NCBI GenBank assembly: GCA_030549795.1
Contig: JAUQQO010000031.1
Span: forward strand, 1 to 35,905
DNA length: 35,905 bases
Direction of reading: 5' to 3'
Source of the DNA: Pseudomonadota bacterium
GTDB taxonomy: Bacteria; Pseudomonadota; Alphaproteobacteria; Geminicoccales; Geminicoccaceae
In this document: one piece after another, positions 1,017 through 23,913 of the stretch
How positions within the stretch are numbered: the stretch's first letter is position 1
Layout of the letters: the number at the start of each line of letters is the position of its first letter
Notes under the pieces: model-generated
What the model was told of the DNA's origin: nothing
The model's input: only the letters and a program-made list of their open reading frames with translations
The model's database searches: none
Made by a program: the position numbers and the translations under genes

Positions 1017-1985
1017 GTGGAGCTCGCCTTCGGCATCGATCTCGGCGGCACCAAGATCGAGATCCTCGGGCTCGACCGCCACGGCAGGGAAGTCTGGCGA
1101 CGGCGCATCGCTACGCCGCGCGCGGACTATGAAGCTACGGTAGAGGCGATCGCCGGCCTCGTCGAGGAAGCGGAAAGGGCGCTTCAAGCGCGCGGCAGCG
1201 TCGGCGTCGGCCATCCCGGCGCGCTGTCTTGCGACACCGGACTGATCAAGAACGCCAACGCCACCTGGCTCAACCGCCGGCCGCTCAAACACGACCTCAG
1301 CCGAAGGCTCGCGCGCCCGGTGGCACTCGCCAATGACGCCAACTGCCTCGCCCTCTCGGAGGCGGTCGACGGTGCCGGCGCCGGTGCCCGGGTGGTGTTC
1401 GCGGTCATCTTGGGCACCGGTGTCGGCGGCGGGGTGGCGATCGACGGGCGGGTGCTTAAGGGCGCCAACGCAGTGGCCGGCGAATGGGGGCACAATCCCT
1501 TGCCCTGGCCCAACGTCACGGAGTTTCCCGGGCGCCAGTGCTGGTGCGGTCGTCGCGGCTGCCTCGAGACCTGGCTTTCCGGGCCCGGTCTTGCTGCCGA
1601 TCACGCCGAGGCGACGGGCGAAACCCTCGACGGGCCAGCGATCGTCGCCCGTGCGCAAGCCGGCGACGCGCGGGCCGCGGCGACCATCGACCGGTGGCTC
1701 GATCGCCTGGCGCGCGGGCTCGCTTCGGTGATCAACATCCTCGACCCCGAGGTGATCGTTTTCGGGGGCGGCCTCTCGCGCATCGCGCGGATCTACGACA
1801 CCGTGCCGGCGCTTTTGGGGCGATGGGTGTTTTCGGATCGGGTGAGGACGCGGCTCGCTGCGGCTGCTCACGGCGACAGCTCGGGAGTGCGCGGAGCCGC
1901 CTGGCTCGGCCGCAACGCTCATGGGCTCACGGACATTCGGGCGCCGGCAGGAGCTCCAAGCGATCGAGACGCCCCTCGATCGTAA
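1017..1985 (+). CDS. mak: ROK-family fructokinase (Mak type)
   Basis: Phosphorylates fructose with ATP to fructose-6-phosphate in the cytoplasm. The 322-residue protein follows the E. coli Mak pattern closely along its length. The N-terminal phosphate motif DLGGTK is at residues 8-13. The catalytic aspartate is D107 in LANDANCLA. The ROK signature follows: GEWGHNPLPW (E156, H159), then the zinc cluster CWCGRRGCLE (C175, C177, C182). The conserved NILDPEVIVFGGG and HGDSSGVRGAAWL blocks are near the end. The start is GTG, after an AAAAGG stretch. About 20 residues extend past the usual family end and lie over the 3' end of the convergent eipB gene; the two coding regions overlap by 59 nt. Substrate preference within ROK is inferred from similarity to Mak. 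Confidence 0.9.
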   Translation: MELAFGIDLGGTKIEILGLDRHGREVWRRRIATPRADYEATVEAIAGLVEEAERALQARGSVGVGHPGALSCDTGLIKNANATWLNRRPLKHDLSRRLARPVALANDANCLALSEAVDGAGAGARVVFAVILGTGVGGGVAIDGRVLKGANAVAGEWGHNPLPWPNVTEFPGRQCWCGRRGCLETWLSGPGLAADHAEATGETLDGPAIVARAQAGDARAAATIDRWLDRLARGLASVINILDPEVIVFGGGLSRIARIYDTVPALLGRWVFSDRVRTRLAAAAHGDSSGVRGAAWLGRNAHGLTDIRAPAGAPSDRDAPRS

Positions 1986-2703
1986 AGAGCCCATAGTCCA
2001 GCGTGACGCTGTGCAGAATACCCTGCTCATCGAGCTCGAAGGCGATCGTGAAATTGGGGACAGGCTCGCGCGAAAGTAAGCCGAAATAAGCGAGCTGCAT
2101 CGGCCAGCGTTGTCTTTGCGTACTCTCCTTGGCGGCTCCGATCACCGCGCTCACGTTGGAAAGCCCATCCGTGCCGGAACCGTCGAAGACGGTGTGGGTG
2201 ATAAAGCGCTCACCGCTCTGGGCGGCGCGGATCAACGCCTCGAGATGCCGAGTCGGGAAAAGCGTGCCGGCCGGAAGATCGAGTTCGAGTCCTTCCGGCA
2301 TCACGAACACCGCCCGACCGGGCCCGCCGGCCGCCTCGAGCCGGGCGTGACCGCGCACCTCCTCGCTCAGCCCCCCGTCCTCGAAGCTGGTGACGGAAAA
2401 GCGCAGCTCCGTGCCGTCGCGCGACTCCCAACTGGAGAAGCGAACATCATAGGAAAAGTTCGAACCGTCGTCCCGGATAGCGGCAAAGCCGAGCCGCTGG
2501 TTGGAGATCCAGCCCTCGCAGGTGGCGCGCAGCTCGAGCACGAGGCCGCCGCGCACCTCGCTTACCGGACCGCGGCTCGTCGGGGCGAGCCCGACGCGAT
2601 AGCCAGCCCGGTGCGGCACGAGCTCCGCTGCGGCAGCGAGCGGGGGCACGATGAGGAGACTTAAGACCACCCCTAAAGCCAAACGGCGGGTCGATCGGCT
2701 CAT
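1927..2703 (-). CDS. eipB: EipB family periplasmic cell envelope integrity protein (DUF1849)
   Basis: The 258-residue protein has a clear signal peptide: basic SRSTRR, a hydrophobic core to about residue 23, and likely cleavage after AAAA near residue 26. The mature part begins ELVPHRAGYRVGL and continues with beta-rich sequence including CEGWISNQR and FSYDVRFSSWESRDGTELRF, typical of DUF1849. EipB is known from Brucella as a periplasmic spiral-shaped beta protein needed for envelope integrity. The only two cysteines, C62 and C257, sit at the two ends of the mature protein, matching the conserved disulfide pair described for EipB. The ATG follows an AAGGAAAG ribosome site. It is transcribed divergently from the dehydrogenase gene across 98 bp, and its 3' end overlaps mak. 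Confidence 0.82.
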   Translation of the reverse strand: MSRSTRRLALGVVLSLLIVPPLAAAAELVPHRAGYRVGLAPTSRGPVSEVRGGLVLELRATCEGWISNQRLGFAAIRDDGSNFSYDVRFSSWESRDGTELRFSVTSFEDGGLSEEVRGHARLEAAGGPGRAVFVMPEGLELDLPAGTLFPTRHLEALIRAAQSGERFITHTVFDGSGTDGLSNVSAVIGAAKESTQRQRWPMQLAYFGLLSREPVPNFTIAFELDEQGILHSVTLDYGLFTIEGRLDRLELLPAPECP

Positions 2704-3767: not shown

Positions 3768-4839
3768 GTCCTTGCTCCGCCGAGAGCGGCTGTGGCGCTT
3801 CATCGCCATCTGGTCGCTCGTCCTCGCCGGTCTGCTGTTGGGCGAGCGGTTCTGGCGCCATCTTCTTTTCGCCGCCGATCGTCCAAGGCCTGTTGAACCG
3901 CGTGGTCCCTTGTGGCCGGAAGAAGAGCGCACGATCGCGCTGTTCCGGGCCGTAGCTCCTTCGGTCGTAGCGATCGTCACCCGCACCGCCGGCGAGAGCG
4001 GCGGGACGGGCTCCGGCTTCGTGTGGGACCGCGCCGGGCATGTCGTCACCAACCACCATGTGATCGAAGGCGCACGCGAGATCGCGGTGATTCTCGACGA
4101 CGGCCGCGTCGTCCCGGCGCGCCTTGTGGGCTCCGCGCCGTTTATGGACCTCGCGGTGATCAAGCTCGATCTCCTCGACGGCTATCCCGCCCCCATCGCC
4201 ATCGGCAGCTCGAGCGATCTCGCCGTCGGCCAGACGGTGTTCGCGATCGGCAACCCCTTCGGCCTCTCGCGCACCCTCACCCAGGGCATCATCAGCGCGC
4301 TCGACCGCCGCTTGCCGACCGCCGGCGGCCGCGAGGTGGCGGGGGTCATCCAGACCGATGCGGCGATCAACCCGGGCAATTCCGGCGGACCGCTGATCGA
4401 TACCGCCGGACGGCTGATCGGGGTGAACACCGCCATCCTTTCCCCTGCCGGCGCCTACGCCGGCATCGGCTTTGCGGTGCCGGTCGACACCGTCAACAAG
4501 GTGGTCCCCGAGCTCATCCGGACAGGTCGGGTGCCGATTCCGGGCATCGGCATCTTGGTCCTGCCGGAAGAGATCACCGCGCGGGCTGGTATTCGCGGGG
4601 TGGCGATCCAGGCGGTGGTGCCGGGCAGCGCCGCCGCCCGCGCCGGACTGCGCGGAACCGATCTCGCGCGCGGCCGCATGGGCGATGTCATCCTCTCCGT
4701 TGACGGGCGGCCGGTGCACTCGCTCGCCGATCTCGCGCTCGAGTTCGAGCGCGTCGGCATCGGCAACCGTGCCCGACTCGAGATCCTGCGCGAGGGGCGC
4801 AGGTTCAGCGTCGAGGTCGAGATCCAAGACGTCGGCTAA
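3754..4839 (+). CDS. Membrane-anchored trypsin-like serine protease, HtrA/DegS type, with one PDZ domain
   Basis: The predicted protein has 361 residues. An uncleaved N-terminal membrane segment (about 14-32, FIAIWSLVLAGLLLGE) anchors it with the protease in the periplasm. The trypsin-like domain (about 60-250) carries the complete triad: H102 in VTNHHVI, D132 in MDLAVIKLD and S210 in NPGNSGGPL. One PDZ domain follows (about 260-361, with GDVILSVDGRPV). A single PDZ and an N-terminal anchor resemble DegS or DegQ-like proteases that sense or remove misfolded envelope proteins. I chose the ATG at 3754 because it begins just before the membrane segment and overlaps the dehydrogenase stop by 14 nt. 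An upstream in-frame extension to 3565 only reads through the dehydrogenase gene in another frame. The stop codon interlocks with that of the convergent gene. Confidence 0.9.
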   Translation: MRSPESLLRRERLWRFIAIWSLVLAGLLLGERFWRHLLFAADRPRPVEPRGPLWPEEERTIALFRAVAPSVVAIVTRTAGESGGTGSGFVWDRAGHVVTNHHVIEGAREIAVILDDGRVVPARLVGSAPFMDLAVIKLDLLDGYPAPIAIGSSSDLAVGQTVFAIGNPFGLSRTLTQGIISALDRRLPTAGGREVAGVIQTDAAINPGNSGGPLIDTAGRLIGVNTAILSPAGAYAGIGFAVPVDTVNKVVPELIRTGRVPIPGIGILVLPEEITARAGIRGVAIQAVVPGSAAARAGLRGTDLARGRMGDVILSVDGRPVHSLADLALEFERVGIGNRARLEILREGRRFSVEVEIQDVG

Positions 4840-5396
4840 GGCGGCAGGCGCGCGCCGGCCGCGAGCGCGAGTGCCGAGGCGGAGCGAGAGAGCGCGCCGC
4901 GTTCTCGCGGCGTGTTGGAAACCCGGGTGAGATCGACGAGCAATTCGTCGACCAGCCGGGCGAGCGGGGCGGCGTGCGCCGCGGGCGGGGCCGCACCCTT
5001 CTTCCGCGCGGCGCTCGCAGCTTCGCCGGCCGGTGCCGGTTCGGCCGCACACGAGCGGGCAGTCGGCGGTGCTGCGCCCCCGGCTGCTTTGCGCACCAGC
5101 CGTTCGGCGCGCAGCTTCAGCAGACGCGCCTCGGCGCGCTCGATGTCGGCGGCAACGCGCGCCGCATAGCGGCACAGCGTAGCGAGCGAGGGCAAGCCCG
5201 CCTCGGCTTTGCCGGCTTTGAGCGCGGCGAGCACCTGCGCTTCGATCACGTCCAACTCGGCCCGCCGTCGGTAGGCGGCGGCGAGCGCGTCGATGGCCGC
5301 GTCCTCAAGCGCATCGGCCGGCTCGTAGCGCGCCCGCAACGCGGCGCGCAGACGCGCGAGCTCGGGATCGGAAAGGGGAGGGGCGGCAGCGGTCAT
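4836..5396 (-). CDS. Unrecognised helical protein, Ala/Arg-rich
   Basis: I do not recognise this 186-residue protein. The first 110 residues look like a real helical domain: a run of amphipathic helices (DPELARLRAALRARY, DAAIDALAAAYRRRAELDVIEAQVLAALK, LATLCRYAARVAADIERAEARLLKLRAER). The middle is low-complexity Ala/Pro, and a short C-terminal helix (APLARLVDELLVDLTRV) follows. The helical part loosely resembles a widespread group of uncharacterised proteins with a Y/R-rich 'LxxLxRYxAR-xERA' helix; I cannot name a family. The ATG at 5396 is chosen because the domain starts soon after it. An ATG at 5432 would add 12 residues, and neither has a strong ribosome site. Its TAG interlocks with the htrA TAA. 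It lies 3' of the SUF operon on the same strand after a 198-nt gap. Confidence 0.55.
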   Translation of the reverse strand: MTAAAPPLSDPELARLRAALRARYEPADALEDAAIDALAAAYRRRAELDVIEAQVLAALKAGKAEAGLPSLATLCRYAARVAADIERAEARLLKLRAERLVRKAAGGAAPPTARSCAAEPAPAGEAASAARKKGAAPPAAHAAPLARLVDELLVDLTRVSNTPRERGALSRSASALALAAGARLPP

Positions 5397-5447
5397 GGCG
5401 CGGGCCTCTGAGGCGGGTCCGTGCCGGATCATTAGCTCAATTGGAGG

Positions 5448-5478
5448 ATTGTGTCCAGATAATTAGGTATTAAGTCAA
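5448..5478 (-). promoter_or_regulatory. Weak candidate promoter upstream of the 4836-5396 gene
   Basis: This is an AT-rich patch in an otherwise very GC-rich window. On the minus strand it reads TTGACT (5473-5478), 19 nt, then CACAAT (5448-5453). The -35 is good, the -10 matches 4 of 6 positions, and the spacing is longer than ideal. It would serve the unrecognised gene below it. Confidence 0.25.
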
Positions 5479-5545
5479 CAGTTAGCGCCGGGGCATAGGA
5501 CACAACGAGAGCCGAGCGGAATTGGTCCGCTGCGTTGGGGCGATC

Positions 5546-5567
5546 AGCCGAACCCCGAGGGGCGGCT
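5546..5567 (-). terminator. Possible hairpin terminator after sufT
   Basis: Inverted repeat AGCCG...CGGCT enclosing CCCC-GA-GGGG, starting 28 nt past the sufT stop. There is no U-run on the minus strand, so it would be a weak or factor-dependent end for the SUF transcript. A second small perfect repeat (AGCGGA/TCCGCT, 5515-5531) follows. Confidence 0.3.
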
Positions 5568-5594
5568 AGGCGCAGTGCGCGGTCGGCGCAGCGC

Positions 5595-6020
5595 TCACCA
5601 CAGCATGCCGAGCTCGAGCCGAGCTTCTTCCGACATCATGGCGGGGCTCCACGGCGGGTCCCAGACCACCTGCACCGTGCAGGCCTTGACCCCCTCGATC
5701 GCCTCCACCTTCTGCTTGACCTCGTTGGGCAGGCTCTCGGCCACCGGGCAGTGCGGCGAGGTCAAGGTCATCTCGATGGTGATCGAATTGTCGTCTTCCA
5801 CATCGATCTTGTAGATGAGACCGAGCTCGTAGATATCGACCGGGATCTCTGGGTCGTAGCAGGTCTTGAGCGCGGCGACGATCTTCTCGCCCAGTGCTTG
5901 CACTTCGGCCATGCGCTCGGGCGAGGGCTGCTCACCTTGGGGTTCGGCCAAGAAGGCAGCCGCGCGCGCAGCCGCGTCTTGAACGCTGTCGTTGCTGGCG
6001 GTGGGCGAGGCCTGGTCCAT
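5595..6020 (-). CDS. sufT: SUF system assembly protein, MIP18/DUF59 family (SufT)
   Basis: The 141-residue protein helps load or mature Fe-S clusters as an auxiliary of the SUF machinery in the cytoplasm. After a variable 45-residue leader it has the DUF59 core: YDPEIPVDIYELGLIYKIDV, then MTLTSPHCPVAESLP with the conserved cysteine, then VQVVWDPPWSPAMMSEEAR. These are the hallmark blocks of the PaaD-like/MIP18 group in SUF operons. The ATG at 6020 starts 8 nt after the sufS stop, and a GTGAGGA stretch spanning that stop can serve as ribosome site. It is the last recognisable gene of the operon; no sufA-type scaffold gene follows. Confidence 0.88.
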   Translation of the reverse strand: MDQASPTASNDSVQDAAARAAAFLAEPQGEQPSPERMAEVQALGEKIVAALKTCYDPEIPVDIYELGLIYKIDVEDDNSITIEMTLTSPHCPVAESLPNEVKQKVEAIEGVKACTVQVVWDPPWSPAMMSEEARLELGMLW

Positions 6021-6028
6021 CGCATTCC

Positions 6029-7282
6029 TCACCGATAGCGGGCGACGATGCGCGCAAGCGCTTCTGTAAGCGCGGTGACCTCGGCCGGTGTCGAGTAGAC
6101 GCCGAAGGAAGCGCGCACCGTAGCGGAAAGGCCCAAGCGCTCGTGCAAGGGCATGGCGCAGTGATGTCCGGTGCGCACGGCGATGCCCTCGAGGTCCAAG
6201 AGCGTGCCGATGTCCTGGGGGTGCATCCCATCGATGGTGAAGCTCACCACCGCGGCGCGCGCGCGCGGCGCACCGATGATGCGCAGACCCGGCACGCGCG
6301 GCAGGCTCTCGAGCGCACAGCCGACCAGTTCCTCCTCGTGCCGGCGTACCGTCTCGAGCCCGAGCCCCAACAGCCAGGAAAGCGCCACGCCGGTGGCGTG
6401 GATGCCGGCGATGTCGGGCGTGCCGGCTTCGAAGCGGTAGGGGATGCGGTTGAAGGTGGTCCGGGCGAAGGACACCCGCTCGATCATGTCGCCGCCCCCC
6501 TGCCAGGGTGGCATCGCCTCGAGCAGTTCGGCGCGCGCCCACAAGATCCCCACGCCGCTCGGCCCGTACACTTTGTGCGCGGAAAAGGCGAGGAAGTCGG
6601 CACCGAGCGCGCCCACGTCGATCGGCAGGTGCGGAGCCGCCTGCGCCGCATCGATCAGCACCGGCACGCCGCGGCGGCGGGCGAGGGCGGTGATCTCGTG
6701 GACCGGATTGACGGTGCCGAGCACGTTCGAGACCCAGGTCACCGCCAACATCTTGGTGCGCGGGCCGATGCGCTCGGCGATCGCCTCAAGTTCGAGCTCG
6801 CCCGCATCGGTGATCGGGACCGGGACCAGCCGGGCGCCGCGGCGCTCGGCCACGAGCTGCCAGGGGACGATGTTGGCGTGGTGCTCCATCTCGCTGAGCA
6901 GGATCTCGTCACCCGGCTCGAGGCGCGGCTCGAGGAAGGCGTAGGCGACGAGATTGATCGCTTCGGTCGCGTTGCGCACGAAGACGATCTCGCGCGCATC
7001 CGAAGCACCCACAAAGCGCGCCACGGTTGTGCGCGCCTGTTCGTGCAGGTCGGAAGCGCGCTGACTGAGCTCATAGACGCCGCGGTGGATATTGGCGTAA
7101 TCCCGCTCGTAAAATCGCGCGAGGGCGTCGATGACCGCGCGCGGCTTTTGGGCGGAGGCGGCGCTGTCGAGATAGATGAGCGGGCGCCCGCGCATCCGCG
7201 TCGCCAGGATGGGGAACTGGGCGCGGATCGCGGCGACATCGAGCGCGCGCGATGGGGCTTCGCGTACCGGTAAGGCGGTCAC
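6029..7282 (-). CDS. sufS: Cysteine desulfurase SufS
   Basis: A PLP enzyme that removes sulfur from cysteine as a persulfide and feeds it to the SufBCD scaffold. The 417-residue protein is a group II desulfurase. It has RGVYELSQRAS near the start, H-H in SEMEHHANIVPW, the PLP lysine K237 in SAHKVYGPSGVG, and the persulfide cysteine C375 in VRTGHHCAMPLH. The GTG start at 7282 overlaps the sufD stop (GTGA) and follows a GAGGAGG ribosome site within sufD. No sufE or sufU partner lies in the operon, so the sulfur acceptor must be encoded elsewhere or bypassed. Confidence 0.95.
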   Translation of the reverse strand: MTALPVREAPSRALDVAAIRAQFPILATRMRGRPLIYLDSAASAQKPRAVIDALARFYERDYANIHRGVYELSQRASDLHEQARTTVARFVGASDAREIVFVRNATEAINLVAYAFLEPRLEPGDEILLSEMEHHANIVPWQLVAERRGARLVPVPITDAGELELEAIAERIGPRTKMLAVTWVSNVLGTVNPVHEITALARRRGVPVLIDAAQAAPHLPIDVGALGADFLAFSAHKVYGPSGVGILWARAELLEAMPPWQGGGDMIERVSFARTTFNRIPYRFEAGTPDIAGIHATGVALSWLLGLGLETVRRHEEELVGCALESLPRVPGLRIIGAPRARAAVVSFTIDGMHPQDIGTLLDLEGIAVRTGHHCAMPLHERLGLSATVRASFGVYSTPAEVTALTEALARIVARYR

Positions 7283-13695: not shown

Positions 13696-17728
<4,033 letters not shown>

Positions 17729-17732
17729 CGCC

Positions 17733-18608
17733 TTAGAACAAACCGAACAGCCAAGAGCCGGATTTGCGCGCCGGCTCGAGCTTTTGCCCTTGGAGGAGCG
17801 CATAAGCGCGTTCGTACCAGGGGCTACCGGGGAAATTGTGCCCGAGAATAGCAGCGGCGTTCTGCGCCTCTTCGCGCACGCCCAAGGCGAGATAGCATTC
17901 GGTGAGCCGATGCAGCGCTTCGGGCACGTGGCTCGTGGTCTGATAGCGCTCGACGACGGTACGAAAGCGGTTAATCGCTGCTAGATATTGTCCGCGCTTT
18001 TGATAATAGCGACCGATCTCCATCTCTTTCCCGGCGAGATGGTCGCGCACGAGATCGACTTTGAGCCTCGCGTCCTTGGCGTAGTCGGAATCGGGATAGC
18101 GACGGATCAGTTCCTCGAAGGCTTTGAGCGCCTCCTCGGTCATCTCCTGATCGCGCTGAACGTCCGAGATCCGCTCGTAATAGCTCATGCCGATGAGATA
18201 GTGGGCGTAAGGTGTGTCGGGATCGCCCGGGTGCAGCTCGATGAAGCGACGCGCGGCCGCGATCGCTTCCTCATAGTCGTTGGCCTCGTAATAGGCATAG
18301 GCCGCCATGATCTGGCTGCGCACCGCCAAGCGCGAGTAGGGATGCTGACGCTCGACCTCCTCGAAGGCGCGCCCCGCTTGGCGGTACTCGCCGCGCGCGA
18401 GCAAGTCCTGCGCGATCTGGTAGAGCTCTTCGGCGGGTCGCTCGACATAGGCCTCGCGCGGATCGCGCGCGCAGCCGTTCGCCCCCAAGACCACCGTCAC
18501 CAGCAGCAGGCGCACAAGGGCAGAGCCGATGCGCCCGGTCGCCCGCAGCACGCTTTTGGCCCTGCGAAGGCGACGTGGCAACCGGCACTGCACAACCATA
18601 CGGAACAT
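17733..18608 (-). CDS. bamD: Outer membrane assembly lipoprotein BamD
   Basis: Essential TPR lipoprotein of the BAM complex, which inserts beta-barrel proteins into the outer membrane. From the ATG at 18608 it has 291 residues: a long basic, then hydrophobic, N-terminus (LVRLLLVTVVLGANGC) with lipid-attachment cysteine C46, then TPR-like helices. Family blocks include YQIAQDLLARGEYRQAGRAFEEVERQHPYS, AHYLIGMSYYERI, RYPDSDYAKDARLKVDLVRDHLAGKEMEIGRYY and NFPGSPWYERAYALL. The signal region is longer than usual and an internal GTG start (18593 or about 18551) is possible. It heads bamD-recN-ligA, a conserved alphaproteobacterial order, but lacks lpxC and ftsZ directly before it. Confidence 0.93.
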   Translation of the reverse strand: MFRMVVQCRLPRRLRRAKSVLRATGRIGSALVRLLLVTVVLGANGCARDPREAYVERPAEELYQIAQDLLARGEYRQAGRAFEEVERQHPYSRLAVRSQIMAAYAYYEANDYEEAIAAARRFIELHPGDPDTPYAHYLIGMSYYERISDVQRDQEMTEEALKAFEELIRRYPDSDYAKDARLKVDLVRDHLAGKEMEIGRYYQKRGQYLAAINRFRTVVERYQTTSHVPEALHRLTECYLALGVREEAQNAAAILGHNFPGSPWYERAYALLQGQKLEPARKSGSWLFGLF

Positions 18609-18610
18609 GC

Positions 18611-18639
18611 TTGCTGCCTTACTCGCGATTAAGTAGATT
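18611..18639 (+). promoter_or_regulatory. Candidate promoter of the XRE regulator gene
   Basis: TTGCTG (18611-18616), 17 nt, TAGATT (18634-18639), in the only AT-rich patch of the bamD/XRE divergent region. On the other strand the same patch offers GATAAT as a -10-like hexamer for bamD. Both are weak calls. Confidence 0.25.
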
Positions 18640-18725
18640 ATCGTCGGCGACCGCGGCAAGACCATAGTGAAGACCGGCGCGGGTCGGAAGCCGGCTCGCA
18701 CTACCGCAGGAGAGAGCCCGAAGGG

Positions 18726-19094
18726 ATGCGCCCGTCCGCCGCCCAGCGCGCAGAGGGTGGTCTCGAGCGCCGGATCGGCGAGCGCATCCGGCTGCGGCGG
18801 CTCGAACTCGGGCTCACCCAAGAACAGCTCGCCGCGGCGTTGGGCGTCTCCTACCAACAGATCCAAAAATATGAGAACGGCACCAATCGGATCAGTGCGG
18901 CGCAACTGGCCGAGCTCGCCCGCAAGCTCGAGGTGCCGATCGGCTGGTTCATCGAAGAGGACGATCCCAAGACGGATGCCGCCAACCCCCGTGGGTTGGT
19001 CGAGCTCGTGCGCGGCTTCGGCACGCTCAAGACGCCCTCGGTGCGCCGCTCGCTGCTCGCGCTCATCAAGCTGCTCGCCGAGCGCCGCCTTTAA
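18726..19094 (+). CDS. XRE-family transcriptional regulator
   Basis: The 122-residue protein has a Cro/C1-type helix-turn-helix: IGERIRLRRLELGLTQEQLAAALGVSYQQIQKYENG, with the HTH at about residues 31-52, followed by RISAAQLAELARKLEVPIGWFI. The 'QQIQKYENGTNRIS' form is common in small alphaproteobacterial regulators. The C-terminal 45 residues are short helices without a ligand domain. It is divergent from bamD and convergent with the CHAD gene (44 nt apart). Targets are unknown; bamD and its own gene are the nearest candidates. The start ATG follows CGAAGGG, a reasonable ribosome site. Confidence 0.88.
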   Translation: MRPSAAQRAEGGLERRIGERIRLRRLELGLTQEQLAAALGVSYQQIQKYENGTNRISAAQLAELARKLEVPIGWFIEEDDPKTDAANPRGLVELVRGFGTLKTPSVRRSLLALIKLLAERRL

Positions 19095-19138
19095 GAGCCG
19101 GCCGCGGCCGCGCGCGGCACCTTCATTCGGCTGTGCGC

Positions 19139-20749
19139 TCAATCCGCCCAAAACGGCGTGCGCGCGCGCAGCGACTGCCAGAGATCACCGGCCCGCGCGA
19201 GATCTTTGGAAAGTGTGCGCGCGTGCCAGCCGAGCACCGCCCCGCTTGCGAGCGCCAGCTCTATCGAGCGCTCGGCTTTTCTCGTCTGGGCGAGCAGCGC
19301 GCGCAGTTGGTGTTCGGCTACTGCGAGATCGTTGAGCCGGCCGAGCAGGTCTTGCACCTTGGCGAGGCGTCGGGCGAATTGGCGCGGCTGCTCACCCGGC
19401 CACAGCGAAGCGAAGAACTCGACGCCATAGCGCAGCTTCTTGATCGCGATGCGCAGCGCATGCCGACCGGCGGCATCGAGTTCATCGAAGTTGCGGCCTT
19501 TTTTCTTCGCTTTGCGAAAGCGGTGCCTTAAGACCTCACGGGCAAAGGGTTGGATCGGCGCTTGTAAGAGCTCCCGCTCCGGCTCGCGCGCCTTCTTCCA
19601 CAAGCGGCCGAGCTCGAAGCCCAAGAAGACATCGAGAGCGAGATCGGCACAACGAGGCTCATCAAGAGCCGCGCGCACCCGCTCAAGGAGCGCTGCGCGT
19701 TGGTCCGCGAGCGCCTGGGCGAGGGCGCGCAGCTCGCGCGGCAACACCTCCGCTTCAAGCAAGGGGGCGAGGATCTCATCGACGAGCACATCGCGGTCGC
19801 GCAACGGAGCGACCGCGCTCAACAACCACCGGAGCTCGCCGCCAAGACGGATCCCTTCGGCTTCCGGCAGCACCGCACGGAAAAGCGAGAAGGCCGAGCG
19901 CAGCCGCCGCAAGCCGACGCGCAGCTGATGCACCGCCTCGATGTCGCCGAAAGCCCGCACGAGCGCCTCGTTGGCAAGCCAGTGGACGAGGCAAGCGCGG
20001 CCGATGGAGGCGAAGGCTTGCCCGACCGTGGCCTTGGGATCGAGGACCACCGCCGGCGCCTTGAGCGCAGCAGGCCCGCCGTCGCGCGCGCCACGCTGCA
20101 GGGGAAGCGGTGCAAAGGGAAACTCGAGGCCAAAAGCTAGGCTCGAACGCAAGGCCTGGGTGAGCTCGAGAAGCGCGCGATCGGCGCCGCGTCGGGCTTG
20201 GAGTTGCAGGCGCGCGATCGGCAGCTGTGCGCCTTGGAACGCGAGCACCCCCTGCTCGAACACCACCGTGAGCAGGGCTTGCGGGTGGTTCCGCTGCGGC
20301 CAGCCAAGCGTGAGCTCGCTGCGCGCGATCTGCCCTTCGCCGATCGCCACCAAGCGCTCGCTGCCAAGGCCATCGAGAAAAGCGCGCGCTTCGCTATCGG
20401 AGAAAGCCGCAAGATCGGGCGTTGGACGGGCAATCGGGACCCGCCATTCGCTGCGATCGGCGATCAGGCCTTCGCTTGCGCGCACGCTCTCGAGGATGGC
20501 AAGGGTATCGCCACCCTCGCCGGTGATCCACAGCGCGAGCCCACGCGCCGCTAGGGCACGATCCTCGGTGTCGAAGTACACCCGCCTTGTGCTCTCTTCG
20601 CGCTGCCGCGCGAGCGCCCGCTCGCTTAAAAGAGCGGGGATGCTCGCGCGCTGATTTCCGGGAAGGAGCGGGCGCAGCACGAGCGTGCGCGCCTGTTGCC
20701 GCGGCGCTGAGCGAGGGACGGCAAGGACCTTGGGTTCACCCCGGCTCAT
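19139..20749 (-). CDS. CYTH-like/CHAD domain protein
   Basis: The 536-residue protein has two parts. Residues about 20-200 resemble a CYTH (triphosphate tunnel) domain: RRVYFDTEDRALAARGLALWI, then SEWRVPIA and later strands. Residues about 250-525 are a CHAD domain, a helical module with conserved histidines and basic residues: IEAVHQLRVGLRRLRSAFSLF, APLRDRDVLVDEIL, RHALRIAIKKLRYGVEFF and LAKVQDLLGRLNDLAVAE. CHAD domains are linked to polyphosphate binding. The CYTH N-terminal catalytic signature E-x-E-x-K is not present; the equivalent strand reads TLVLRPL, so triphosphatase activity is unlikely. No ribosome site is evident at the ATG. It is divergent from the stress protein gene across 129 bp. 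Confidence 0.85.
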   Translation of the reverse strand: MSRGEPKVLAVPRSAPRQQARTLVLRPLLPGNQRASIPALLSERALARQREESTRRVYFDTEDRALAARGLALWITGEGGDTLAILESVRASEGLIADRSEWRVPIARPTPDLAAFSDSEARAFLDGLGSERLVAIGEGQIARSELTLGWPQRNHPQALLTVVFEQGVLAFQGAQLPIARLQLQARRGADRALLELTQALRSSLAFGLEFPFAPLPLQRGARDGGPAALKAPAVVLDPKATVGQAFASIGRACLVHWLANEALVRAFGDIEAVHQLRVGLRRLRSAFSLFRAVLPEAEGIRLGGELRWLLSAVAPLRDRDVLVDEILAPLLEAEVLPRELRALAQALADQRAALLERVRAALDEPRCADLALDVFLGFELGRLWKKAREPERELLQAPIQPFAREVLRHRFRKAKKKGRNFDELDAAGRHALRIAIKKLRYGVEFFASLWPGEQPRQFARRLAKVQDLLGRLNDLAVAEHQLRALLAQTRKAERSIELALASGAVLGWHARTLSKDLARAGDLWQSLRARTPFWAD

Positions 20750-20878
20750 TCAGCGAAGCTCGGCGCACGCATTGCATCCCAGGCGGTACCGGGACGCTCG
20801 TAGCGGCCGCGTGGCGCGTGCGCAACGCGACGCAGGCGCCGTTTCGTGGTAACGGATCGGGCGCAGCCCAGCGGGAGG

Positions 20879-21727
20879 ATGGCGGTGAGCCTTAAGGATC
20901 TGCTCGTTCACCTCGACGTAAGCGAGGCTTCCCATGCGCGGTTGGAGGCGGCGCTTGCGCTCGCGCGCGCCTTTGAGGCGCATCTGTCTGCACTGTGCCT
21001 CGTCGTCGAGCCCTATGTACCGGCGGTTGTGGGGGTCAATCTGCCGGCCGAGATCCTGGCGCAACAGCGTGAGCAGGCGGAAGCGGCCGCGGCGGACGTG
21101 CTCGCGCGCGCGGCCGAGCGCGCCCGCGTCGAAGGGATAAGCTTCGAGCAACGGCGGGAGACGGTGATGATCGACCGCCTTCCCGACGCCCTCGCGCGCC
21201 ACGCGCGCCATGCTGATCTCACCATCGTCGGCCAGCCCGATCCCGAGCGCAGCGGGGTCGACGACACGCTCATGGTAGAAGCGGCGTTCATGGCCTCTGG
21301 CCGGCCGGCGCTGGTCATCCCCTATATCGGCGCCCGCACGATGCCACCTGAGCGGGCGATCTGCGCCTGGGACGGCTCGCGCGAGGCGGCGCGCGCGCTC
21401 AACGATGCCATCCCCTTGTTGCAGCGCGCGAAAGAGGTGAGCCTCGTCGTCATCGACCCCGACAAGCTCGGCGATCGCGTCGGGGCGGTTCCCGGAGCGG
21501 ACATCGGCGCCCATCTCGCGCGCCACGGCATCAAGGTGACGGTGAAGACCCTGCAGTCGGGCGGCCTCGATCCCGGCGATGTTCTCCTCTCCACCGCCGC
21601 CGATGAGGGCGCAGATCTGTTGGTGATGGGCGGCTATGGCCATTCGCGCTTGCGCGAGCTGATCTTGGGAGGAACCACCAAGAATATTCTCGAACACATG
21701 ACCATCCCCGTGCTCTTCTCGCACTGA
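20879..21727 (+). CDS. Universal stress protein with two UspA domains
   Basis: The 282-residue cytoplasmic protein has tandem Usp folds. The first (about 5-145) opens LKDLLVHLDVSEASHARLEAALALA and contains HADLTIVGQPD. The second (about 150-282) contains RAICAWDGSREAARALNDAIPLL and the glycine-rich nucleotide loop MGGYGHSRLRELILGGTTKNIL (from M250). The loop in the second domain suggests ATP binding, while the first domain lacks a full loop. This tandem form is common in Alphaproteobacteria. ATG 20879 is chosen because GGGAGG sits right before it; an upstream in-frame GTG at 20846 has no such site. The ThuA-like pseudogene begins 5 nt after the stop on the same strand. Confidence 0.92.
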   Translation: MAVSLKDLLVHLDVSEASHARLEAALALARAFEAHLSALCLVVEPYVPAVVGVNLPAEILAQQREQAEAAAADVLARAAERARVEGISFEQRRETVMIDRLPDALARHARHADLTIVGQPDPERSGVDDTLMVEAAFMASGRPALVIPYIGARTMPPERAICAWDGSREAARALNDAIPLLQRAKEVSLVVIDPDKLGDRVGAVPGADIGAHLARHGIKVTVKTLQSGGLDPGDVLLSTAADEGADLLVMGGYGHSRLRELILGGTTKNILEHMTIPVLFSH

Positions 21728-21732
21728 GCGCG

Positions 21733-22450
21733 GTGGAAAGGCGCACTGCTCTTGCGCTTGCGCTTTTGCTCCCCGCTTCTCTTCCGGCGCGCGGGGAAGA
21801 GCTGCTGCCCGTGACCGCAACCGGCGGCTATCGGCAGGCGTCGATCCCGGCGGCGGTTGCGAGCTCGCGCGCGCTCGCCGAGCCGCTCGGCAGCTCGACG
21901 GGCCGATCCCGCTCGCCGCACGCGATCTTCAGAGCGTGCGGGTGGTCGCCCTCGTCCACACACAGGAGCGTTTTTGAGCGCCGACGCGCTCGCCCGGCTC
22001 GATGCCTTCGTGCGCGCAGGGGGTGGCCTGATCGCGATCCACGCCGCTGCCGATGCGCACTATGGATCGGCGCTCTATCGCGATCGCATCGGTGAGTGGT
22101 TTCTCTCTCACCCGCCGGGGCTGCAATCGACCGTCGTGCGCTTCGCCGACGACCTGCCGGGCTTTGCAGCCCTCGGCGGTGGGCGAGGCTGGATGGTCAC
22201 CGACGAGCTCTACGATTTTGAGGACAATCCGCGGGGGCGGGTGCGGGTGATCGCGACCCTCGACGAGACGACCTATGGGAGCGGTCGTATGGGGGACGAC
22301 CATCCGACCGCCTGGTGTCGCGAGCTCGGCCTGGGGCGCAGCTGGTACAGGGGGCTCGGCCACCGCCCCGAGCTCTTTGAGGATCCCGTGTTCCGCGAAC
22401 ATCTCGCGCGCGGCCTCGCCTGGGTCGCCGGGCGCGGCACCAGCTGTTGA
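21733..22450 (+). pseudogene. ThuA-like gene with two frameshifts
   Basis: The parts of a ThuA-like protein (class-I glutamine amidotransferase-like fold) lie in three frames in the correct order. Frame one from the GTG at 21733 has a signal-like start and LLPVTATGGYRQASIPAAV. The middle, LAARDLQSVRVVALVHTQERF, lies in another frame and ends in TGA at 21975. The third frame gives FLSADALARLDAFVRAGGG, IAIHAAADAHYGS, GRMGDDHPTAWC and SWYRGLGH. Each shift equals loss of one base. The second lies in the T-run 21971-21975, where a sixth T would restore the frame. The span is 718 nt, and two more bases would give 239 codons plus stop. It is either a real pseudogene or a pair of assembly errors. Confidence 0.8.
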
Positions 22451-22462
22451 GGGCAAAGTGAG

Positions 22463-22489
22463 GCCGCCCGAGCCGGTGGCTCGGGCGGC
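22463..22489. terminator. Strong bidirectional hairpin between ftsZ and the ThuA-like gene
   Basis: The 12-bp stem GCCGCCCGAGCC/GGCTCGGGCGGC is perfect, around the loop GGT. It lies between two convergent genes, 44 nt past the ftsZ stop. There is no clear U-run on either side (ACTTTG on the minus strand), so termination is probable but not textbook. Confidence 0.6.
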
Positions 22490-22533
22490 GGCTGCGGCTC
22501 TAGTTCGCGTTAAGGCAAAGCGCCGAGGGCTCT

Positions 22534-23913
22534 TCACTCGTCGCGGCGCTCGCGGCGCAGGAAGGCCGGGATGTCGCTCGCATCGACGAGTTCCGGGCGC
22601 TCCACCTTGGTCTCCGGCTCTCTCGGTTCGGGGGCCGGCTTGGTTGTGCTCGTGCGCTGGAAGGTGAAGTTGCGCATGCGCTCGATGAAGGAGGGCGCCC
22701 GGTTCTCGCCGCTGCTCGGGCGCGCCCCCGGGCGTACCGCGCGCAGCTCGCTCGTAAAGCTCCCACTCAAGCCGGAAGCCGCGGCTGCTTCGCCGCTGCT
22801 TTGCACTTTAAGTTGGGCTGCCGGGCTCGGCGGAGCCGACTTAGCGGAGCTGCGCGCCGGGAAGGGGGCGGGTTGCGGCCGATGCAACTGGGTGGGAAAG
22901 ACAAAAGCGCGGCTCGTGCTCTCGCTCTCCCGCGCCGGCCGTTCCTCGGGGCTCGCGATGCCGGTTGCGACCACCGAGATGCGCATCCGGCCTTCCATGG
23001 TGGGATCGAAGGTCGAGCCGAAGATGATGTTGGCATCGGGATCCACTTCCTCGCGGATCCGATTGGCGGCGGCATCCACTTCATAGAGCGTCATATCGTA
23101 GCCGCCGGTGATGTTGATGAGCACGGCGCGCGCACCGCGCATCGAGACATCGTCCAAAAGCGGATTGTTGATAGCCGCTTCGGCGGCTTCGATCGCGCGT
23201 CGTTCACCCGAAGCTTCACCCGTGCCCATCATCGCCTTGCCCATCTCGCTCATCACCGTGCGGATGTCGGCGAAATCGAGGTTGATGAGTCCGGGCATGA
23301 CCATGAGGTCGGTGACCCCGCGCACCCCCATGTGCAGCACCTGATCGGCCATGCGGAAGGCATCGGCGAAGGTGGTCTTCTCGTTGGCGAGGCGGAACAA
23401 GTTCTGGTTGGGGATGACGATCAAGGTGTCGACATATTGCTGCAGCTCGGCGAGGCCCTGCTCGGCGATGCGCATGCGGTGGGCACCCTCGAAATGGAAG
23501 GGTTTGGTCACCACCGCCACGGTCAAAATGCCCTGTTCGCGCACCGCGCGCGCGATCACGGGTGCCGCCCCGGTGCCGGTTCCACCACCCATGCCGGCGG
23601 TGATGAAGACCATGTGGCTGCCCTGGAGCTGATCGAGGATCTCATCGAGCGCCTCTTCCGCGGCGGCGCGCCCCACTTCCGGCCGTGCGCCGGCGCCGAG
23701 GCCGTGGGTGATCGAGACCCCAAGCTGGATCTTGCGATCCGTCAAGCAGTTGGCGAGCGCCTGGGCGTCTGTGTTGCAGACGACGAACTCCACCCCTTCG
23801 AGGTGGGAGGTGATCATATTGTTGACGGCGTTACCGCCGGCGCCACCTACGCCCACGACCGTGATCTTGGGCTTGAGCTCTTGGTGCAGCGGTATCGAGA
23901 GATTGATCGTCAT
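22534..23913 (-). CDS. ftsZ: Cell division GTPase FtsZ
   Basis: Tubulin-like GTPase that forms the division ring. The 459-residue protein has the GTP-binding core: [17 protein letters not shown] (17-33), the tubulin signature GGGTGTG (109-115), and the synergy loop with [16 protein letters not shown] long disordered linker rich in Ser, Pro, Arg and Ala (about 320-440) leads to the C-terminal peptide DIPAFLRRE that binds FtsA. The longer-than-E. coli linker is usual in Alphaproteobacteria. The ATG follows AGGAGGAG. It is the last gene of the dcw cluster, 90 nt after ftsA. The usual follower lpxC is not present. Confidence 0.98.

What the first reader, a model, noticed from the sequence alone, without database searches (positions are those of the whole stretch)
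17733..22533. lpxC missing from the ftsZ-bamD interval and an unrelated block in its place
In many Alphaproteobacteria lpxC follows ftsZ and precedes bamD. Here the interval carries an XRE regulator, a CHAD protein, a UspA protein and a broken ThuA gene in mixed orientations. Either lpxC moved, or this lineage lacks canonical lipid A, as some Alphaproteobacteria do.
Basis: partly seen in the sequence, partly recalled or inferred. Interest (0 to 1): 0.6.

Follow-up and report, generated by a model that had tools for sequence, protein, structure and literature searches.

The report
Lipid A lost, sphingolipid exporter kept
The missing gene marks a bacterial lineage that seems to have given up lipid A, the usual anchor of the Gram-negative surface, and to export sphingolipids through part of the old lipid A export machine instead, which makes an open question about how outer membranes are built testable.

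Summary
In detail: between ftsZ and bamD there is no lpxC, but a frameshifted ThuA gene and Usp, CHAD/CYTH and XRE genes. The block did not replace lpxC: four relatives carry lpxC directly after ftsZ with block genes behind it, so lpxC was deleted later.

The loss is genome-wide. LpxC, LpxB and WaaA have no match, and the weak LpxD-profile hits are CysE, GlmU and a carbonic anhydrase, in a 99.96%-complete genome; a one-contig congener also lacks LpxC, LpxB and WaaA. Across 31 genomes of the order, LpxB, LpxD and WaaA occur in the same 8; LptD in 31; serine palmitoyltransferase (SPT) in 25, including all 23 without those lipid A genes. The 23 have only a second LptF/LptG pair, which groups with the sphingolipid-linked pair of Caulobacter; the first pair was not found in them.

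Best reading: a sphingolipid synthesis-and-export module (SPT, ceramide genes, LptF2G2) was coupled to inherited LptD, then lipid A and LptF1G1 were lost, at least twice. That LptD carries sphingolipid is inferred. Six relatives keep a degenerate LpxC without the pathway; in the one close pair testable it is under purifying selection, unexplained.

The parts
22534..23913 (-). ftsZ, upstream border of the interval
   Evidence: translation; 81-92% identical FtsZ in five congeners
22451..22533 (.). 83-bp gap between the ThuA and ftsZ stops: the place where lpxC lies in relatives
   Evidence: lpxC directly after ftsZ in 13 of 14 family members with an LpxC match; no remnant here
21730..22450 (+). 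ThuA gene broken by at least two frameshifts (5' limit approximate)
   Evidence: PF06283 positions 60-209 in one frame; N-terminal part in other frames
20846..21727 (+). universal stress protein (Usp)
   Evidence: PF00582, 71 bits; also found behind lpxC in G003 and G030
19139..20749 (-). CHAD protein, weak CYTH match
   Evidence: PF05235, 181 bits; also found behind lpxC in G003, G005, G015 and G030
18726..19094 (+). XRE-type regulator
   Evidence: PF01381, 64 bits; also found behind lpxC in G005 and G015
17733..18608 (-). bamD, downstream border (start inferred; the open frame runs to 19151)
   Evidence: PF13525, 200 bits; tblastn extent
16058..17803 (-). recN (longest open frame)
   Evidence: open frame; same order ftsZ..bamD-recN-ligA in relatives; name from sequence by eye

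Best explanation
The lineage has lost lipid A. lpxC was deleted from between ftsZ and an older Usp-CHAD-XRE block. The outer leaflet is most likely built from an anionic phosphosphingolipid of the Caulobacter ceramide-phosphoglycerate kind, made by aasR, cerR, acpR, spt, a lipid kinase and a GNAT-like (CerS-like) protein, taken out of the inner membrane by LptF2/LptG2 encoded in the same cluster, and delivered by the old, vertically inherited LptD. Order of events: gain of the sphingolipid module with LptF2G2; coupling to LptD; loss of the lipid A genes together with LptF1G1; decay or deletion of lpxC. Shown by sequence: which genes are present or not found, the two LptFG types and their partition. 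Inferred: that sphingolipid is the cargo, that LptD delivers it, and the chemistry of the lipid.
For: LpxC not found in the own genome. LpxB 8/31, LpxD over cut-off 8/31, WaaA 8/31, the same eight genomes. LptD 31/31, full-length in ten examined. LptF/G 31/31. In a tree of 62 of the 68 LptF/G matches, all 23 genomes without LpxB/LpxD/WaaA have type-2 LptF and none has type 1; type 1 is in 7 of the 8 others, each time on the lptD contig close to lptD. SPT in 25/31 (22 over cut-off, 3 in pieces); the six without it all have the lipid A genes; no genome lacks both. Own cluster aasR-cerR-acpR-spt/302-aa gene-kinase-LptG2-LptF2-MPE-GNAT; the same gene order in two Caulobacter genomes whose second LptFG pair falls in the type-2 clades (LptF2 support 1.0, LptG2 0.90). 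G026, a separate loss, shows the same state. SPT of G019/G026 groups with Caulobacter while LptD follows the species tree.
Against: No lipid was measured. LptA, LptB, LptC and LptE were not searched. G013 has LpxB, LpxD, WaaA and LpxC but only type-2 LptFG was found in it (87% complete), so the partition is not perfect. G019 carries both systems. An orphan Lip_A_acyltrans gene lies near lptD in the own genome. LptG1 is only weakly supported as a clade once outgroups are added (0.20). In 10 of 25 SPT genomes SPT was not on the fetched LptF2G2 stretch.
Confidence: 0.75

Rival explanations
1. LptD and LptF2G2 are kept for some other cargo (an unknown glycolipid or polymer anchor), and sphingolipids reach the outer membrane by another route.
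For: No cargo was measured; LptD lies apart from the sphingolipid cluster in the own genome (C45 against C50).
Against: LptF2G2 sits among ceramide and kinase genes in the own genome, its relatives and Caulobacter; all 25 SPT genomes have type-2 LptF, none of the 6 SPT-less ones does.
Confidence: 0.17
2. Lipid A is still made by enzymes too divergent to be recognised.
For: Profile searches can miss extreme divergence; a Lip_A_acyltrans-family gene is present; LpxA was not searched directly.
Against: LpxC, LpxB, LpxD and WaaA are all unmatched at once in many near-complete genomes while the same profiles ring in lipid A-bearing family members and in E. coli and Caulobacter controls.
Confidence: 0.05
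3. The block replaced lpxC in one insertion event.
For: In the window the block lies where lpxC would be.
Against: lpxC and block genes coexist in G003, G005, G015 and G030; G026 lost lpxC with no block.
Confidence: 0.02
4. Assembly gap or binning artefact.
For: The window is one contig of 57.
Against: 99.96% completeness; six of six congeners agree, one of them (G023) in a single contig.
Confidence: 0.01

Closest known systems
Caulobacter sphingolipid gene cluster with second LptC/F/G (CC_1168, CC_1156, CC_1155; PMC11324152, passages and section 9 read)
   Same: SPT, ceramide genes, kinase, LptF2, LptG2 and a GNAT/CerS-like gene in matching order; LptF/G in the same clades
   Different: Caulobacter keeps lipid A-linked LptF1G1 beside lptD as well; the window's lineage does not. 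No LptC2 was looked for here. The paper proposes transport but did not study it
Sphingomonas-type envelope without lipid A, with sphingolipids (PMC10964400, whole text read; PMC11324152)
   Same: No lipid A genes found, SPT present; a Sphingomonadales MAG has one LptFG pair, type 2, next to SPT
   Different: A different order; losses seen inside one family with lipid A-bearing relatives. Lipid A genes of that MAG were not searched genome-wide
Laboratory loss of lipid A in Caulobacter with anionic sphingolipids (Zik et al. 2022; not held, known from PMC10964400)
   Same: Sphingolipid needed where lipid A is missing; here no genome lacks both
   Different: Here a natural, fixed and repeated loss with co-loss of LptF1G1
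MurA-LpxC regulatory contact (PMC9995270: abstract, section 7 and passages read)
   Same: A possible non-catalytic role for LpxC; high predicted scores in a subset of Rhodospirillales
   Different: There LpxC is an active enzyme; MurA binding of the degenerate LpxC seen in relatives is untested

Membership tests
Alphaproteobacteria without lipid A (Sphingomonas type) | No lipid A pathway genes | tested here: met
   LpxC, LpxB, WaaA no match; LpxD-profile hits are CysE, carbonic anhydrase, GlmU. LpxA only indirectly
Alphaproteobacteria without lipid A (Sphingomonas type) | Sphingolipid synthesis genes | tested here: met
   SPT NF047599 606 bits (cut-off 500), with AcpR-, CerR- and AasR-like neighbours
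Alphaproteobacteria without lipid A (Sphingomonas type) | Sphingolipid in the outer leaflet, no lipid A in cells | not testable with these tools
   no lipid data
Caulobacter-type LptF2G2 | Falls in the LptF2 and LptG2 clades | tested here: met
   27 of 28 outgroup sequences plus 62 family sequences; support 1.0 (LptF2) and 0.90 (LptG2)
Caulobacter-type LptF2G2 | Encoded with SPT and ceramide genes | tested here: met
   own genome and 15 of 25 SPT genomes on the same fetched stretch
Caulobacter-type LptF2G2 | Transports sphingolipid | not testable with these tools
   untested also in PMC11324152
LptD | LptD barrel domain PF04453 and N-terminal part | tested here: met
   own 169 bits, 801-aa frame; PF03968 N-domain not reported for the own protein at E<=0.05 though reported in 6 of 10 examined, one of them the congener G023
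LpxC deacetylase (six orphan copies in relatives) | Catalytic and zinc residues (E. coli numbering recalled) | tested here: not met
   K239 changed in 6/6; D242 lost in 4/6; H79 and H238 lost in G015; G014 and G003 keep the three zinc ligands

The most novel reading that the evidence does not exclude
In relatives that no longer have lpxB, lpxD and waaA, LpxC persists beside ftsZ as a catalytically dead protein under purifying selection, so LpxC has a second, non-enzymatic role, perhaps as a partner of the cell-wall enzyme MurA that couples wall growth to the envelope without lipid A. The MurA link is a guess from published work on active LpxC.
Probability: 0.3. Interest if true: 0.82.

Novelty: new variant of a known kind. 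Interest (0 to 1): 0.66.

Why it matters
Two papers consulted say that it is not known how bacterial sphingolipids reach the outer membrane (PMC11324152) or that no transporter has been identified (PMC11087976). This family is a natural experiment: the 23 genomes without lipid A genes all have SPT and LptD and only the sphingolipid-linked LptFG type. That predicts one shared LptD end-station fed by cargo-specific LptFG pairs, and suggests that a sphingolipid module comes before lipid A loss. It also offers relatives at different stages of the loss, including an unexplained dead LpxC.

Tried and rejected
Rejected: the block as replacement of lpxC; lpxC moved or hidden in a gap (single-contig congener G023); an lpxC remnant at the locus; the weak LpxD hits as lipid A enzymes (seven checked: CysE, carbonic anhydrase and GlmU in the own genome, GlmU in G001 and G015, a large oxidoreductase-hexapeptide fusion in G026, a NeuD-like acetyltransferase in G030; the weak hits of other genomes were not checked one by one). 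G013 as a contaminated bin was considered: G+C of its Lpx stretches is 0.62-0.64 against 0.64-0.66 for three other stretches and its LpxC groups with G014 of the same genus, so it was kept as a real counter-case.

Led nowhere: the first Pfam scan around lptD took several wrong frames (repeated). In one search two of four LpxC query frames (from L001 and L011) were on the wrong strand, so 'LpxC-' labels for G002, G028 and G029 there are artefacts; positions were taken. Paper searches gave nothing on this lineage; two gave the Caulobacter papers. No tool names the order; Geminicoccales is only my recollection (one search shows that the name exists, nothing more). The only family member I could tie to a named record is MAG RBC091 (G002, same 43,572-base contig as L013). 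One search was an empty script.
Full report
Observation. The window is a whole contig (C24) of a 3.16 Mb, 57-contig genome, 99.96% complete. After ftsZ (22534-23913, -) come a ThuA gene broken by at least two frameshifts, Usp, CHAD/CYTH and XRE genes, and bamD-recN-ligA. 83 bp separate the ftsZ and ThuA stops. LpxC is not found here or in the genome. The premise is sound: of 80 named ftsZ loci, 10 too short, 61 of 70 have lpxC within 3.5 kb downstream.

When lpxC left. The order holds 31 searchable genomes, all of one family. LpxC matches occur in 14 of 31, in 13 beside ftsZ or a piece of it, in one (G013) at a contig end. G003 reads ftsZ-lpxC-Usp-CHAD; G005 and G015 ftsZ-lpxC-CHAD-XRE-bamD; G030 ftsZ-lpxC-Usp-CHAD-bamD; G002 and G019 ftsZ-lpxC-bamD. 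Without lpxC: G000, G023, G024, G017 and G025 read ftsZ, (ThuA), Usp, CHAD, XRE, bamD; G018 Usp-XRE-bamD; G001 CHAD-bamD; G026 ftsZ-bamD with neither. The stretches of G020, G021 and G022 ended before bamD, and in G007-G010 bamD was not on the fetched stretch. So block genes came in behind lpxC first and lpxC was deleted later. In G020, G021 and G023 an open frame of about 350 aa lies between ftsZ and ThuA, absent in G000 and G022.

The pathway. LpxB is in 8 of 31, LpxD over its cut-off in 8 of 31, WaaA in 8 of 31: the same eight, G002, G004, G005, G011, G012, G013, G019, G027 (one stop inside the LpxD match of G027). Among genomes at least 90% complete and at most 5% contaminated, LpxB and WaaA are in 6 of 22. 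All six genomes of the genus lack them, G023 in one contig included. The own genome's three weak LpxD-profile hits are CysE, a gamma carbonic anhydrase and GlmU. LpxA was not searched directly; in the eight positive genomes the LpxD profile also hits hexapeptide genes beside lpxD at 34-85 bits, presumably LpxA, while the own genome's best hit is 20.7 bits. In a class sample at 95% completeness or more, 340 of 389 have LpxC and 49 do not (29 of these 49 unlisted), so loss is a minority state and not unique to this family.

What was kept. LptD is in 31 of 31 and LptF/LptG in 31 of 31 (68 matches, 62 put in a tree, six fragments left out). The tree has four clades, LptF1, LptF2, LptG1, LptG2. All 23 genomes without LpxB/LpxD/WaaA have LptF2 and none shows type 1; LptG2 was in the tree for 21 of the 23 (G003 only a fragment, G029 none). 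Type 1 occurs in 7 of the 8 others, in all seven close to lptD on its contig. G019 has both types; G013 shows only type 2 (pieces). The own type-2 pair lies on contig C50 in aasR-cerR-acpR-spt / 302-aa gene-lipid kinase-LptG2-LptF2-metallophosphoesterase-GNAT. SPT (NF047599) is over its cut-off in 22 of 31 and present in pieces in G013, G020 and G030, so 25 of 31; G002, G004, G005, G011, G012 and G027 have only lower-scoring paralogues (at most 265 bits, cut-off 500), and all six have lipid A genes. Cross-table: lipid A genes without SPT 6, with SPT 2, SPT without lipid A genes 23, neither 0. SPT was on the same fetched stretch as LptF2G2 in 15 of 25 (three as fragments); in the other 10 it was not.

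Outgroups. Of 12 named genomes two Caulobacter have two LptFG pairs and ten have one. Of 28 sequences 27 were placed (one of Inquilinus was not extracted): the second Caulobacter pair and the only pair of a Sphingomonadales MAG fall with type 2 (LptF2 support 1.0, LptG2 0.90), the rest with type 1 (LptF1 0.98; LptG1 weak, 0.20). Gene order SPT-302aa-kinase-MPE-LptF2-LptG2-GNAT is shared with Caulobacter; in the MAG SPT, LptF2, LptG2 and the GNAT gene adjoin, and its ftsZ locus has no lpxC in 9.4 kb (its genome was not searched for Lpx). PMC11324152 (passages, section 9) names second LptC/F/G in the Caulobacter cluster as probable transporters, not studied further; PMC11087976 (passages) says none had been identified.

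History. A FastTree from seven proteins with unequal coverage (29 family genomes; G006 and G016 missing) puts G026 outside the clade of the other losses (0.976) and near G002 and G019 (0.73; 0.99 in the LptD tree of 18). In a tree of 17 SPTs, G026 and G019 group with Caulobacter (0.985), apart from 12 other family members (0.89). So the module was probably acquired twice and lipid A lost after each. G013, nested among genomes with only an LpxC-like gene, still has the pathway, which would imply more losses. Two losses are secure.

Orphan LpxC. G003, G014, G015, G028, G029 and G030 have an LpxC match but no LpxB, LpxD or WaaA (completeness 93, 86, 95, 82, 86, 96%). Frames are open. K239 is changed in 6 of 6; D242 lost in G015 and the three g16 genomes; H79 and H238 lost in G015; G003 and G014 keep the three zinc ligands (numbering recalled). 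The N-terminal third is 51-58% identical to active copies, the rest 28-44% (three active controls 60-62% and 52-55%). D242 is lost in all of g16, so the G028-G029 divergence came after: dN/dS 0.205 (N-terminal 0.089, rest 0.296), against 0.159 and 0.201 for two active pairs; G028-G030 and G029-G030 give 0.455 and 0.442. In a simple neutral simulation 6% of lineages showed no stop. This rests on one close pair. MurA binding (PMC9995270) is one possible reason, untested here.

Confidence. Shown: presences, missing matches and their partition. Inferred: that LptF2G2 and LptD form one path and carry sphingolipid. I put absence of lipid A at about 0.95 and the export path at about 0.75. It works like the path proposed for Caulobacter; clade and cluster membership were tested and met, biochemistry could not be. 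Ten paper searches in an open-licence library showed no report of lipid A loss in this family or of co-loss of LptF1G1.

Noticed in passing
L176:2614-3573 (-) and 1424-2686 (-), own genome contig C45 near lptD: A Lip_A_acyltrans (PF03279, 165 bits) gene beside an ELM1-family gene in a genome without lipid A genes; not detected near lptD in the other stretches compared.
   Followed up: no
G013 (L139, L224, L241, L242): Lipid A genes present but only type-2 LptFG found, and none within 5.6 kb upstream of lptD; either an incomplete bin (87%) or one LptFG serving two cargoes.
   Followed up: partly
L157, L158, L160 between ftsZ and ThuA: An open frame of about 350 aa (by eye like a D-threonine aldolase/alanine racemase; no family search run) in G020, G021 and G023, missing in G000 and G022.
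   Followed up: no
L211:2850-3731 (+) and 3828-6185 (+): A sulfotransferase-like and an ELM1-family gene beside the sphingolipid cluster; could modify the surface lipid.
   Followed up: no
G011 contigs C123 and C354 (L240, L225): Two near-identical type-1 LptF sequences on different contigs in a genome with 5% contamination; perhaps mixed strains.
   Followed up: no
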